From Cetobacterium somerae (GTDB taxonomy: Bacteria; Fusobacteriota; Fusobacteriia; Fusobacteriales; Fusobacteriaceae): a stretch of DNA of 64,000 nucleotides. The stretch spans positions 994,454 to 1,058,453 of the forward strand of contig NZ_CP092519.1 of the NCBI RefSeq assembly GCF_022430525.1. The letters are read 5' to 3'. Below are positions 17,745 through 23,846 of the stretch, one piece after another; position 1 is the stretch's first letter, and each line of letters begins with the position of its first letter. The notes beneath the pieces were generated by a model. That model did no database searches, was not told where the DNA came from, and saw nothing but the letters and a program-made list of their open reading frames with translations. The position numbers were made by a program, and so were the translations under genes.

Positions 17745-17767
17745 CTTTCCTCCTACTACATTTTTTA

Positions 17768-18349
17768 TTATTTGGCTTTTTCAAGAACTTTAGCTATATT
17801 TTTATAAACTTCCCTTGTTGCTCTAATATCTTCTAAAGCATCATGTGCATTTTCTAAAGATACATTAAAATGTTTACACCAAGTTTCCAATCTATTATTT
17901 TCTAAAATTGGTAAAACTCCCATTACTTGAAGAGATTTTACTAGATTTAAAGTACATACATTTAATTTGAAATCAATAAAACTTCCCATAAATCTATTGT
18001 TTAATCTATTGTAAAAGTTATATAACATTCTAAAATCAAATGGAAAATTATGACAAATCATTATTAATTTATCATTTTTATTATATCTATCTACATATTT
18101 CGAAAAAATTTCCTCCAACTCTTTTAATGCCTCTTCTGGTTCTTGTTCTTGATTAAGTTCTTCTATTGTAAACCCTATAGTTTTCAAAGCACTTTCAGAA
18201 ATATCTGCTCCTTTATGAGGTTTACATCTAATATTAAACCACTCTACAACTTCGTTATCTATCTCTATTGCTCCAGCTATTTGAACTATTGCAGAGTTAT
18301 CTGTTAAACCTGTTGTTTCTGTATCTAAATATAATAATTTCATATCCAT
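17768..18349 (-). CDS. DnaQ-like 3'-5' exonuclease (DEDDh)
   Basis: A 193-residue exonuclease domain protein. ExoI LYLDTETTGL (D and E metal ligands), ExoII ICHNFPFDFRML, and ExoIII HDALEDIRAT give the complete DEDDh catalytic set. It is a stand-alone exonuclease, similar to the proofreading subunit epsilon or RNase T type; the exact substrate is not determinable. ATG 18349 follows AAAAAGGAGG. Not linked to a polymerase gene. Confidence 0.85.
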   Translation of the reverse strand: MDMKLLYLDTETTGLTDNSAIVQIAGAIEIDNEVVEWFNIRCKPHKGADISESALKTIGFTIEELNQEQEPEEALKELEEIFSKYVDRYNKNDKLIMICHNFPFDFRMLYNFYNRLNNRFMGSFIDFKLNVCTLNLVKSLQVMGVLPILENNRLETWCKHFNVSLENAHDALEDIRATREVYKNIAKVLEKAK

Positions 18350-18462
18350 CCTCCTTTTTATCTATATTTTTATAATACTCTATCATTTTTAAAATTACAA
18401 TGCAAAATATTTATAAGTCCATATTGAAATAACTTGCATCATTTTTTGCAGTAAATTTCAAA

Positions 18463-18491: not shown

Positions 18492-18510
18492 ATGAATAAC
18501 AGTTCAAATA

Positions 18511-18606
18511 AATAGGCAAAATAAAGGAAACTTTATGACGCAAAACTATAGGGCCTTTTAGATGGCAGCCAGTTGCAACAATTTTCAATAAAATTGTTGC
18601 TTTTTT
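18511..18606 (+). ncRNA. c-di-GMP-I (GEMM) riboswitch 1 with terminator
   Basis: The aptamer has the class hallmarks: AGGCAAA, a stem ATAAAG-GAAA-CTTTAT with GNRA tetraloop, GACGCAAAACTATAGGGCC, then GATGGCAGCCAG-TTGC closing against GGCAA. It is followed by a terminator GCAACAATTTT/AAAATTGTTGC (18575-18600) and T run that overlaps the closing strand. It controls the downstream GGDEF protein gene at 18712. Whether ligand turns expression on or off cannot be decided from the small overlap. Confidence 0.93.
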
Positions 18607-18711: not shown

Positions 18712-20655
18712 TTGAAATTTTTTAAAAACAAATCTATAAAATTACTACTCTTTTTATTAATAGCAACAACTATTTTTTCAAATGATAATACTTTTTATTT
18801 AGGAATTCAAAGTTATCCAGAAACTGAAATGGAAATAGATGGTGTTTCTATAAATAACATTATTCGTGATATATTTAAAAATGAACTAAAACTAAATGTA
18901 AAAGAAGTTCATGGTACATGGAGAGATAGTTATAATCAACTAGAAGATGGTACAATTGGAGCTTTAGGTTTAGTTACTAAAAATAATATTAGAAAGGATA
19001 ACATATTACTTTCTAAACCAATTTTTAGCGAGAACCTGTACATTGCTTCAGATAAAAAATTATTAAAGTCACCTTATGATTTAATGAATCAAACCATATA
19101 TGCATATAAAGATGATGAAATGCCTATAAAATACTTAAAAGAGTATTTAGAACAAAATAATATAACTGCAAATATAGTTGAAGTAGAAAATATTGATGAT
19201 TATAAAAATGATTTTTATTTAGATTCTGAGTTCATAGCTGTTAAATCTCAAAATAGATTGCTAGTTTCATTTCTAGCTCCAGTTTGTATCGGTGTAAATA
19301 AAAAATATGATTATCTATTACCTTATATAAATAACGCTTTAAATAAAAAATACAGTAAAAAAATATCAACTTACTTTAAAAATCTTCCATTGTATCATCA
19401 AAGAGAAAGATTTCAAAATAGTTTAACAAAAGAGGAAAAAGAGTTTTTAGCACAAAAGAAATTTATAACTACTTCTCTTGAGGATGATATTTCTTTAAGT
19501 ATTTATATAAAAAATCAAGATAAATTTATTGGGATACTTCCTCAATATATAAATAAATTAGCCAGCATTATTAATATTCCAATAAAATATATTTATAATG
19601 GAAAAGAGTGGCTATATATACAAGAAAAATTCAAACAAGAAAATATCGATTTTTTAACACTTTCAACAACAGCTAGAAGAAAATCAAGTTATATTTTTTC
19701 TGAAGCAATTGATTTTATCCCCATGCATCTACTTAATCACGTGGATAGTGGTGATTATAATGTTGGAGTTTTAAAAGATGGAAAATCACAAGATATAGGT
19801 AAAGAGTTTTTTCCAAAAGAGGATATAAGAATTTATAATTCAACAACAGAGTTATTTAATGCTTTTAAAAAAGATGAGATTGGTTATATAATAAGTCCAT
19901 ATAATATCTATGATAGAGATTGTCATAAGCAACATAAAGATATAAAGATAAAAGATATTCCTGTAAATTTTGCTTTCTCAAAAAATCAGGAAATGTTAAG
20001 AAATATTTTTAATAAGGCAATTGCCGTTGTTGGAGATTTTGATAGAAACGAAATTAGAAACTTTGTAGAAACAGATCAAAAAGAATATGTTATGGGTCTT
20101 ATTGAAGAAGCAGAACATAAGAAAAAAATATGGTATATATTTACACTAGTCTTCGGATTATTAATTTGTAAAATTGTTTTTCAAAGAAAATTAACAAAAG
20201 CTTTAACACATGATCAATTAACAAAATTACCTAATAGATATCTTTTTAATGAGTTTTGTAAGAAGAATGATAATACTAAAGGCGCTGTTATTGTTATTGA
20301 CTTAGATAATTTTAAAAAAACTAACGACAATTATGGCCATAGTAAAGGAGATCTCGTTCTTTCTGAAGTAGGAAAACTTTTACTAGAAGTTTTTTCTAAA
20401 GAACATACTTTTAGAATATCTGGAGATGAATTTTATCTATTTTATGAAAACAGAGATCTTTTAGAAAGATTAGAAAAATTAGTAACTCTGGGGAAAAATT
20501 CAACTATTATTAATCAATATAATATCTCTTTTAGCATTGGATATTATATTAAAAATATTGATGAAACTTTGGAATTGGCATTTGAAAAAGCTGATATAGC
20601 TATGTATGATGCTAAAAAACTAAATGGTTTTTCAATTATGGAATATAAAAAGTAA
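18712..20655 (+). CDS. Sensor diguanylate cyclase (SBP-type domains + TM + GGDEF)
   Basis: Makes c-di-GMP from two GTP. The 647-residue protein has a signal peptide (KLLLFLLIATTIFS), two solute-binding type 3 periplasmic modules (about 25-225 and 235-455), one membrane helix near 475-490 (WYIFTLVFGLLICKIVF) and a C-terminal GGDEF domain with DLDNFKKTND and the active-site variant SGDEF at 570-574. It starts at TTG 18712, 7 nt after GGAGG. The architecture suggests a small ligand sensed in the periplasm. Riboswitches lie both before it and between it and the EAL gene. Confidence 0.9.
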   Translation: MKFFKNKSIKLLLFLLIATTIFSNDNTFYLGIQSYPETEMEIDGVSINNIIRDIFKNELKLNVKEVHGTWRDSYNQLEDGTIGALGLVTKNNIRKDNILLSKPIFSENLYIASDKKLLKSPYDLMNQTIYAYKDDEMPIKYLKEYLEQNNITANIVEVENIDDYKNDFYLDSEFIAVKSQNRLLVSFLAPVCIGVNKKYDYLLPYINNALNKKYSKKISTYFKNLPLYHQRERFQNSLTKEEKEFLAQKKFITTSLEDDISLSIYIKNQDKFIGILPQYINKLASIINIPIKYIYNGKEWLYIQEKFKQENIDFLTLSTTARRKSSYIFSEAIDFIPMHLLNHVDSGDYNVGVLKDGKSQDIGKEFFPKEDIRIYNSTTELFNAFKKDEIGYIISPYNIYDRDCHKQHKDIKIKDIPVNFAFSKNQEMLRNIFNKAIAVVGDFDRNEIRNFVETDQKEYVMGLIEEAEHKKKIWYIFTLVFGLLICKIVFQRKLTKALTHDQLTKLPNRYLFNEFCKKNDNTKGAVIVIDLDNFKKTNDNYGHSKGDLVLSEVGKLLLEVFSKEHTFRISGDEFYLFYENRDLLERLEKLVTLGKNSTIINQYNISFSIGYYIKNIDETLELAFEKADIAMYDAKKLNGFSIMEYKK

Positions 20656-20751
20656 GGGCAAAATAAAGGAAACTTTATGACGCAAAACTATAGGGCCTAA
20701 TCATATGGCAGCCAGGTGCAACAATTTTTTAATTAAAATTGTTGCTTTTTT
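20655..20751 (+). ncRNA. c-di-GMP-I (GEMM) riboswitch 2 with terminator
   Basis: Nearly identical in its core to riboswitch 1 (AGGGCAAA, the ATAAAG-GAAA-CTTTAT stem, GACGCAAAACTATAGGGCC, ATGGCAGCCAGG). It starts at the last base of the GGDEF gene stop codon and ends in GCAACAATTTT/AAAATTGTTGC (20718-20745) plus T run. No separate promoter is visible, so it seems to regulate read-through into the EAL gene at 20795. Confidence 0.93.
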
Positions 20752-22174: not shown

Positions 22175-22735
22175 TTAAACTATTTTTACACCGATTTTCT
22201 TAACAATATTTAAAGCTAAATCTATAGAAACCTTTGCCCCTTTTATTTTGTTGCTTACAATGTCTATCATCAATCCACTACAATCACTTAAATCTGCATT
22301 TTCTAATATACACTCATAAAAATCGGTATCTTTAAATTTACTGTTATTAAATTTAGATTTTTTTAAGCTACACTTTTGAAAGGTACATTCTTCAAATTCA
22401 TTTTTATAAAACTCCAATCCATCTAACTGTAGGTCATCAAAAATACAGAATTTCATAAACGAATTTATAATTTGAAAATCTATTATAAACCTAGATATTT
22501 TACTAAAATTTATATTTTTAAATTCACAATTTTTAAATATAGCTCCATTTAACTTTACATTGTCTAAGTTTACTGAATCAAATTTACATTTTTCAAAAAT
22601 TACCTCTTCAAAATCACAATCTGAAAAAGTTACATTGTTAAAATTACATTTTTCAAAATTTGTTTTTATTATTTCTTTTCCAAAAATTAATTTTTCTTCT
22701 AAATCTATTCCTATTATATCCTCTTCAAAATACAT
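22175..22735 (-). CDS. Pentapeptide-repeat protein, 186 aa
   Basis: A 186-residue soluble protein made largely of A(D/N)LXX-type five-residue repeats with aromatic or aliphatic centres: NFEKCNFNNVTFSDCDFEEV, then IFEKCKFDSVNLDNVKLNGA, and again KSKFNNSKFKDTDFYEC near 130. Such repeats form a right-handed square beta-helix. Some relatives mimic DNA and protect gyrase, but no function can be assigned here. ATG 22735 follows AGAGGAGAAAA. Stand-alone gene. Confidence 0.85.
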   Translation of the reverse strand: MYFEEDIIGIDLEEKLIFGKEIIKTNFEKCNFNNVTFSDCDFEEVIFEKCKFDSVNLDNVKLNGAIFKNCEFKNINFSKISRFIIDFQIINSFMKFCIFDDLQLDGLEFYKNEFEECTFQKCSLKKSKFNNSKFKDTDFYECILENADLSDCSGLMIDIVSNKIKGAKVSIDLALNIVKKIGVKIV

Positions 22736-22835
22736 TTTTCTCCTCTTTTTTTTATTTTTTATAATAATTTAATTGTAATTTTTTTAAATAAATTTGCTTT
22801 TTACTATTTTATATAGTAAATAGATATTATTAGAC

Positions 22836-22900
22836 TCTGTTTTAGTCAAGGGGGCTAGCGGGGGAAGCTTCTTAGTTTAAATTACTAAGAAGCTTTTTTT
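22836..22900 (+). ncRNA. Candidate G-rich small RNA with terminator
   Basis: Downstream of a TATTAT (22825-22830) lies a short hairpin (GACT/AGTC), a G-rich single-stranded segment GGGGGCTAGCGGGGG and a strong terminator AAGCTTCTTAGT/ACTAAGAAGCTT with T run. No coding frame exists, and the next plus-strand gene is about 1 kb away, so it is better explained as a small RNA of about 60 nt than as a leader. The -35 is weak. Confidence 0.5.
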
Positions 22901-23027
22901 ATTTTATAAAAAACACTTTTTTGTTTTTTTAATTTAAAAAAAACATTATCTTAAATGTTATTTATAAATAAATTAATTGCAATTTTATCGTATATAATAT
23001 ACAATACACCGTATTACTTAGAATGTG

Positions 23028-23084
23028 AAAAATAAGAACAAGTTGGATTTAGTTTTTCTATATCGCATGTGTGTTTTTATTTTT
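23028..23084. ncRNA. Conserved hairpin motif, copy 1
   Basis: A 31-nt core (23041-23071) beginning AGTTGGATTTAG and ending CTATATCGCATGTG is enclosed by a 13-bp stem, AAAAATAAGAACA with TGTTTTTATTTTT (one G-U pair). The stem sequence differs completely from copy 2 while the core is nearly identical. Strand uncertain; T runs follow on the plus strand. Confidence 0.6.
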
Positions 23085-23123
23085 TTAAAACAAATTAGTT
23101 TTAAAATTTCATTTTAAGTATAC

Positions 23124-23172
23124 AAGAGAGTGAGTTGGATTTAGCTAGTCTATATCGCATGTGCACTCTCTT
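23124..23172. ncRNA. Conserved hairpin motif, copy 2
   Basis: The same 31-nt core (23133-23163; 28 of 31 identical to copy 1, all differences in the central five-base loop) is enclosed by a perfect 9-bp stem AAGAGAGTG/CACTCTCTT. Compensating stems with a constant core are what a selected RNA structure looks like. No coding potential. Confidence 0.6.
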
Positions 23173-23328
23173 CTATTCCTAAAAATTATCCTTTACTATA
23201 TTTCTCTTTTCTATTTTTTCTACTGGATTAGATTGTTCTTTTAATTCTTTACACTTTTTCCTACTACAGATAAAGAAACTAATAATTCTTATTCAAATAA
23301 AATTTATATATTATAATGATTTTAATCT

Positions 23329-23523
23329 TTAATAACAAATTTTACAAGGTCCACGACCCCCAACTTCTGATATTTTCACAGCTTTTATATTTTTACTTTT
23401 ACTCAAACTTTTACAAGATTTAGTTGCATGATATTTCTTACCTTTTGGAGTAACATAAACTGTGTCAGAAGCACTAGCAAATAAAGTAACTCCTAAAAAT
23501 AAACTAATTATAATTTTTTTCAT
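23329..23523 (-). CDS. Small secreted Ada-type zinc-binding-like protein, 64 aa
   Basis: Signal peptide MKKIIISLFLGVTLFASAS, then the pattern VYVTPKGKKYHATKSCKSLS and GGRGPCKICY. This is the small metal-binding module (H, C ... C, C) seen in Ada-like and other short envelope proteins. A complete, 64-residue exported protein; ATG 23523 follows TTGGAGGAGTT. No neighbour suggests its role. Confidence 0.7.
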   Translation of the reverse strand: MKKIIISLFLGVTLFASASDTVYVTPKGKKYHATKSCKSLSKSKNIKAVKISEVGGRGPCKICY

Positions 23524-23703
23524 AACTCCTCCAATTTTTCATTTATTTAATTATAACTCTTTGACAAAAAAAGAGCAAATCACTTGTTCTTTAAAATTTC
23601 GCTTATTAATTTCTTTATATTTTTATAATTTATCTACTCATAAATTTTTAATAAATTTAAAACTTTTTTATACAATCTTTGGTCTAAATATTATAATAAG
23701 TGT

Positions 23704-23775
23704 TAAAAGTAGTAAATAATTTAATCCCCCCCAGATAAGAACCTCTTCCCCCCCAGAGGTTCTTATTATTTTTTG
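23704..23775 (+). ncRNA. Candidate C-rich small RNA with terminator
   Basis: A TATAAT at 23692-23697 with TATACA 17 nt upstream would start an RNA near 23704. It has a CCCCCCC segment, then the hairpin AAGAACCTCT/AGAGGTTCTT whose loop is TCCCCCCCC, then a T run. Two exposed C-tracts of this kind are typical of small RNAs that pair with GGAGG ribosome-binding sites. No ORF is present. Confidence 0.55.
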
Positions 23776-23846
23776 CAAATATATTTTAATCGTAATATAA
23801 TTAAAAAAATGGAACTTTTAATTCTTTACATATGGAGGTATTTAAA

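What the first reader, a model, noticed from the sequence alone, without database searches (positions are those of the whole stretch)
23028..23172. Two tandem hairpins with a conserved 31-nt core and entirely different closing stems
Seen: cores 23041-23071 and 23133-23163 agree at 28 of 31 positions, differing only in the loop centre, while the enclosing stems (13 bp and 9 bp) share no sequence yet both pair. That is internal covariation, strong evidence for a selected RNA structure with a large conserved internal loop. No neighbouring gene is obviously controlled, so it may be a trans-acting or protein-binding RNA, or a tandem candidate riboswitch. I cannot name a known family; bacterial candidate motifs such as drum should be compared.
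Basis: partly seen in the sequence, partly recalled or inferred. Interest (0 to 1): 0.7.

Follow-up and report, generated by a model that had tools for sequence, protein, structure and literature searches.

The report
Twin RNA hairpins with shared core
A small intergenic stretch in a Cetobacterium genome encodes two RNA hairpins that carry the same 31-letter core on unrelated stems; relatives keep the core and the base pairing while moving the unit to other places, so it is probably an uncatalogued small RNA or terminator element whose core is recognised by something in the cell.

Summary
Two hairpins at 23028-23084 and 23124-23172 share a core (28 of 31 identical) on different, fully paired stems. 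The pattern is never met in 100 shuffles, and the region folds better than all 200 shuffles. A covariance model found strong matches only in the genus of the window, which plasmid records identify as Cetobacterium: 5 of 98 phylum genomes, plus two Cetobacterium somerae plasmids. Thirteen hairpins (12 distinct rows, 7 loci) keep 93.3% of pair cells paired; 10 of 19 pairs change on both sides and 0 of 500 shuffles reach the covariation score. In four tandem pairs hairpins 1 and 2 share 88-100% of the core but only 41-50% of the stem. The loci are not orthologous and share no informative neighbouring gene family. No Rfam family fits, drum included. Best reading: an uncatalogued Cetobacterium RNA module, transcribed on the + strand, the second hairpin doubling as intrinsic terminator and the core docking a protein. 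Structure and distribution are shown; transcription, terminator role and partner are inferred. A riboswitch is not supported.

The parts
23028..23040 (+). hairpin 1, 5' arm of closing stem (13 bp)
23041..23071 (+). hairpin 1 conserved core AGUUGGAUUUAG-loop-CUAUAUCGCAUGUG
23072..23084 (+). hairpin 1, 3' arm of closing stem, U-rich
23085..23123 (+). spacer between the hairpins; AT-rich; between model matches it is 39 nt here, 47 and 49 nt in two relatives and 7 nt in a third
23124..23132 (+). hairpin 2, 5' arm of closing stem (AAGAGAGUG; AGAGU type kept in relatives)
23133..23163 (+). hairpin 2 conserved core
23164..23172 (+). hairpin 2, 3' arm (CACUCUCUU); followed by a weak pyrimidine tail here, by longer U tails in most relatives
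22977..23005 (+). candidate sigma-70-like promoter TTGCAA-17-TACAAT, 9 of 12; not significant as a set over the four tandem loci (fraction of shuffles 0.087)

Best explanation
It is an uncatalogued, Cetobacterium-restricted structured RNA: a short intergenic transcript on the + strand made of two hairpins (sometimes only the second). Shown: both hairpins keep one core (AGUUGGAU ... AUCGCAUGUG, with a bulged G, a U.U mismatch and a small internal loop) while the closing helices change by compensatory substitution; hairpin 2 has its own conserved stem type (AGAGU/ACUCU) and, in most relatives, a U tail. Inferred: hairpin 2 ends the transcript as an intrinsic terminator; the distorted core is a docking site for a protein (less likely another ligand), and the stems only clamp it. 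A tandem pair then offers two identical sites on one RNA, as a scaffold or sponge would. It acts in trans or as a 3'-end element, not as a switch for a neighbouring gene.
For: Covariation over 12 distinct rows: 93.3% cells paired, 26 cells with both-side change, score 0.349 against shuffles 0.147 with 0 of 500 reaching it; slid controls reach at most 0.141. An inner pair goes A-U, G.U, G-C across rows, and one apical loop is remade as GGGAAACC in C. somerae p3. Same-species hairpins: core 88-100%, stem 41-50% identical; the same hairpin across four species: stem 61% (HP1) and 80% (HP2). The 3' tail is at least as T-rich on + as on the mirror strand in 11 of 11, strictly in 8. One locus per genome in different contexts, no informative shared gene family. 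No Rfam family.
Against: No expression data. Promoter-like sequences upstream are not significant as a set (0.087 for four loci, 0.245 for six). G.U against A.C cells do not fix the strand (4 against 3). In the window itself the tail after hairpin 2 is weak (CUAUUCC) and the terminator scan did not call it (its loop limit of 8 excludes such hairpins). Two hairpin-1 copies fold no better than shuffles (z -0.31 and -0.34). No partner protein is identified. The rows come from one genus, so they are related.
Confidence: 0.45

Rival explanations
1. Core-bearing terminators or 3'-end elements: the hairpins are intrinsic terminators or insulators between transcription units, and the conserved core is bound by a termination, processing or stability factor. 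No separate sRNA exists.
For: By gene positions read from the ORF lists and annotation (gene names by eye where not annotated), 4 of 7 loci lie downstream of a same-strand gene: stomatin-type gene in G006, csm-type gene in G004 just before a CRISPR array, a hypothetical gene in p3, repB on the 4.1-kb contig if it is circular. Long U tails in p3, G011, G005/p1 and G006. Both single-hairpin loci with strong scores (p3, G011) keep the hairpin-2 type.
Against: In the window, in p1/G005 and in G011 no same-strand gene lies directly upstream. An ordinary terminator needs no conserved 31-nt core or second copy.
Confidence: 0.25
2. DNA-level mobile element: the two imperfect palindromes are the ends of a minimal non-autonomous element moved as single-stranded DNA by an IS200/IS605-type transposase.
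For: The alignable stretch between window and p1 runs from 23031 to 23172, i.e. hairpin to hairpin. Positions are not orthologous, and both ends share a core, as transposon ends do.
Against: At most two loci per genome; no autonomous element with such ends in the genomes searched. The end stems differ within an element but covary, unlike transposon ends. No shared flanking tetranucleotide at a fixed distance was seen by eye. No clean empty site was found: the compared loci differ by larger replacements.
Confidence: 0.12
3. Plasmid- or replicon-borne maintenance element (antisense, single-strand origin or similar), captured by chromosomes.
For: Copies lie on C. somerae plasmids p1 (664 kb) and p3 (188 kb) and on a 4.1-kb contig with repB-type and mob-type genes.
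Against: No match on p6. The window and G006 copies lie on 1.9-Mb contigs. Position relative to rep genes is not conserved.
Confidence: 0.08
4. Tandem riboswitch or other cis-regulator of a downstream gene.
For: Tandem aptamer-like hairpins with a conserved internal core.
Against: No downstream same-strand gene in most loci and none shared; in the window the next gene (23329-23523) is on the other strand. No Rfam riboswitch match there.
Confidence: 0.03

Closest known systems
drum RNA motif (Rfam candidate)
   Same: Recalled: small conserved bacterial hairpin-type motif seen in several phyla, proposed as sRNA.
   Different: No drum match in the window at gathering score or in 22800-23400 up to E 10.
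CsrB/RsmZ-type protein-sequestering RNAs
   Same: Works-like comparison (recalled): repeated protein-binding hairpins on one RNA titrate a regulator.
   Different: Only one or two sites; the GGA lies in the inner stem, not in the apical loop; no relation tested beyond the Rfam scan.
IS200/IS605-type terminal palindromes and their short derivatives (recalled)
   Same: Two imperfect palindromes with bulges at both ends of a short unit found at different loci.
   Different: Single locus per genome, covarying stems, no autonomous partner found.
FoxI/FoxJ C-stretch sRNAs of Fusobacterium nucleatum
   Same: The G011 hairpin carries a CCCCCC apical arm like their cytosine-stretch seeds; the neighbouring element E does too (passages of PMC11005410).
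   Different: The other 12 aligned hairpins have no C-stretch; no relation of the core to these sRNAs was seen.

Membership tests
drum RNA (Rfam) | match to the family covariance model | tested here: not met
   no match at gathering score or up to E 10 in 22800-23400
any Rfam 15 family | gathering-score match at the hairpins | tested here: not met
   p3 and G011 copies give only sub-threshold matches (best 22.0 bits against a cut-off of 90)
riboswitch | conserved location upstream of a shared gene family | tested here: not met
   no protein family shared between loci beyond collinear synteny of window and G006 and two weak matches of the G011 neighbourhood to distant window genes
intrinsic terminator | stable hairpin followed by a U tract | tested here: inconclusive
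   8 to 11 T in the 12 nt examined for 5 of 7 hairpin-2 or single copies, but 6 in the window and 5 in the 4.1-kb contig copy; terminator scans did not call the hairpins, their loop limit is 8
IS200/IS605-type element ends | autonomous copy with the same end hairpins and a Y1 transposase | tested here: not met
   model search of the own genome and of 12 genus genomes finds no further strong copies; the transposase itself was not searched
trans-acting sRNA | independent transcript from its own promoter | not testable with these tools
   promoter scan not significant; no RNA-seq on hand
CRISPR array or anti-repeat | sequence relation to CRISPR repeats | tested here: not met
   repeats of the G004 arrays next to the pair have unrelated sequence by eye

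The most novel reading that the evidence does not exclude
A new class of bacterial RNA gene in a phylum that, judged from F. nucleatum, lacks Hfq and ProQ: a movable twin-hairpin RNA whose two cores evolve in concert because a lineage-specific RNA-binding protein reads both, while stems and genomic address are free to change.
Probability: 0.2. Interest if true: 0.65.

Novelty: new variant of a known kind. Interest (0 to 1): 0.45.

Why it matters
F. nucleatum is reported to lack Hfq and ProQ (passage of PMC11005410), so how fusobacterial sRNAs find protein partners is open. A conserved bulged core kept in two copies, with co-changing variants per species, is a ready bait for an RNA-binding protein in Cetobacterium. 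If ordinary, it still adds an uncatalogued RNA family with 13 aligned examples.

Tried and rejected
Rfam at gathering score and at E up to 10 for the window hairpins, p3 and G011 copies: no family. Collection pattern scans: 18 viral and 114 genome contigs stretches, then 0 and 27 viral stretches. Scoring all 45 viral and all 114 genome stretches with the model gave nothing above 24.2 bits; 5 top ones inspected lack the paired closing stem of the family or lie in open frames. These scans may leave out records near the window's genome. Weak phylum matches in G009 (E 0.0057), G018 (0.023) and G048 (0.09) were dropped after reading the sequences: they lack the AUCGCAUGUG half; G018 does share a GATTTAGTTATACTATAT stretch and could be a distant relative. 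Other genus matches at E 0.3 to 10 were dropped without individual inspection. A half-motif search of the own genome gave two extra hits without a hairpin, judged by eye to be coding sequence. Shared neighbour proteins: none informative. An ECF-type promoter upstream of the hairpins was found only at p3. Literature: searches listed no description of this motif. For PMC11005410, PMC8632094 and PMC11109978 I saw passages only; the other papers only as search listings.

Full report
What is there. The + strand of 23028-23172 holds two hairpins, 23028-23084 and 23124-23172, in an intergenic stretch between two minus-strand genes (22175-22735, pentapeptide-like by eye, and 23329-23523). Their 31-nt cores agree at 28 positions. 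One search gives the fold of each: closing stem, AGU, UGGAU paired with AUC-G-CA (bulged G), a U.U mismatch, UAG/CUA, a 5-nt loop, then UGUG. The pattern has two matches in the window against 0.00 in 100 shuffles, and 0 of 200 shuffles fold as well as the region.

Relatives. A strict pattern found 3 of 98 phylum genomes. A covariance model from six hairpins matched 8 of 98 phylum genomes at E up to 0.1: five strong (G000, G004, G005, G006, G011, E below 1e-7, all in the window's genus) and three weak ones that I set aside (see Tried and rejected). Within the genus 5 of 12 genomes hold it; 9 of 12 have some match at E up to 10, the further four only weak ones (best E 0.0057 to 5.7). Plasmid records name the genus: Cetobacterium somerae p1 carries the pair and p3 a single hairpin. 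The window's genome has a further, weaker single hairpin (36.1 bits, E 7.1e-5) on a 4.1-kb contig; a gene there matches a Cetobacterium RepB at DNA level.

Structure evidence. The 13 hairpins (12 distinct rows; p1 and G005 are the same locus in near-identical genomes, so 7 loci) give 93.3% paired cells, 10 of 19 pairs with both-side changes, 26 such cells and a covariation score of 0.349 against 0.147 in shuffles (0 of 500), with slid controls at most 0.141. That alignment was fitted to the model, so the six-sequence MAFFT alignment is the fairer check: 93.0% paired, 7 pairs with both-side change (4 of 500 shuffles reach that), score 0.337 against 0.160 (0 of 500). The rows are related, so the shuffle counts are not probabilities.

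Two hairpins, one core. In the four tandem pairs, hairpin 1 and hairpin 2 of one species are 41-50% identical in the stem columns but 88-100% in the core. Across species, stems average 61% for hairpin 1 and 80% for hairpin 2, cores 94%. Stem type therefore tells hairpin 1 from hairpin 2 across species, while the cores stay alike. Species-specific changes appear in both members: CGCTTGTG in both G004 hairpins and 8-nt loops in both G006 hairpins. Gene conversion or a common partner would explain this; I cannot tell which. The strongly scoring single-hairpin copies (p3, G011) have the hairpin-2 stem type (AGAGY/RCUCU) and U tails.

Strand. The tail on the + strand is at least as T-rich as the mirror tail in 11 of 11 hairpins, strictly in 8 (the G005 pair, near-identical to p1, was left out of that count). 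G.U against A.C cells do not decide it (4 against 3). Upstream promoter-like sites exist (TTGCAA-17-TACAAT here, TTGCAA-17-TAAAAT in G004) but are not significant as a set (0.087 for four loci).

Location. The loci are not orthologous. In G006 the window's 17758-18419 is followed at once by 23645 onward, so the block that holds the hairpins in the window is absent there; G006's pair lies between the equivalents of 31940 and 32449, where the window has none. The C. somerae pair lies upstream of glutaredoxin and ribonucleotide reductase genes; in the window's genome the matching locus aligns only from just 3' of hairpin 2 (L164 position 5155) and has other sequence before it. In G004 the pair sits between a cas-type gene (by eye) and a CRISPR array. 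No informative gene family is shared. The unit has changed address, whether by rearrangement (the repeated element E lies nearby in the window and in p1) or by transposition; no clean empty site was found.

Mechanism. My preferred reading is an RNA whose distorted core is a protein dock, held by interchangeable clamps, the second hairpin ending the transcript. Shown: structure, conservation of core, compensatory stems, genus-limited distribution, changed positions. Inferred: transcription, termination, protein binding, action in trans. The strongest rival is a 3'-end element; 4 of 7 loci follow a same-strand gene. A DNA transposon end is less likely. A riboswitch is unlikely.

Novelty. No Rfam family fits, and the literature searches named in Tried and rejected listed no description. 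It is a new family of a known kind of thing (structured bacterial RNA) with an unusual twin architecture.

Noticed in passing
window 23640-23790 (+), element E; copies L248-L267, L154: Multi-copy candidate sRNA: conserved ECF/sigma-E-like promoter (AAAACTT, about 16 nt, GTCTAA; assigned by eye), then a short RNA with two C-stretches, the second in the loop of an intrinsic terminator. It resembles FoxI/FoxJ cytosine-stretch sRNAs of F. nucleatum (passages of PMC11005410) and scores below threshold with 6C RNA. Such a large family would deserve its own study.
   Followed up: partly
window 22845-22900 (+): G-rich stretch (GGGGGCTAGCGGGGGAAG) running into an intrinsic terminator; GGGGGAAG is complementary to CTTCCCCC of element E. 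FoxJ is reported to act on G-stretches in terminators, so this may be a target or partner.
   Followed up: no
L152 5180-5245 (G011): The single hairpin of G011 has a CCCCCC apical arm (GATGCCCCCCAGGTTCTTT) similar to the element E loop, as if a C-stretch seed had been placed on the core-bearing hairpin.
   Followed up: partly
window 18505-18580 and 20647-20723: Two c-di-GMP-I riboswitches, one before each of two genes that look by eye like GGDEF/EAL signalling genes, inside the block absent from G006.
   Followed up: no
L155 about 6438 (G006): A degenerate 3' half of the core (TTATATTGCATGTG) lies upstream of the G006 pair, possibly a decayed third hairpin.
   Followed up: no
L156 6144-6190 (G018, another genus): Terminator-like hairpin with GATTTAGTTATACTATATTACA, partly like the core; weak (E 0.023), possibly a distant relative or chance.
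   Followed up: no
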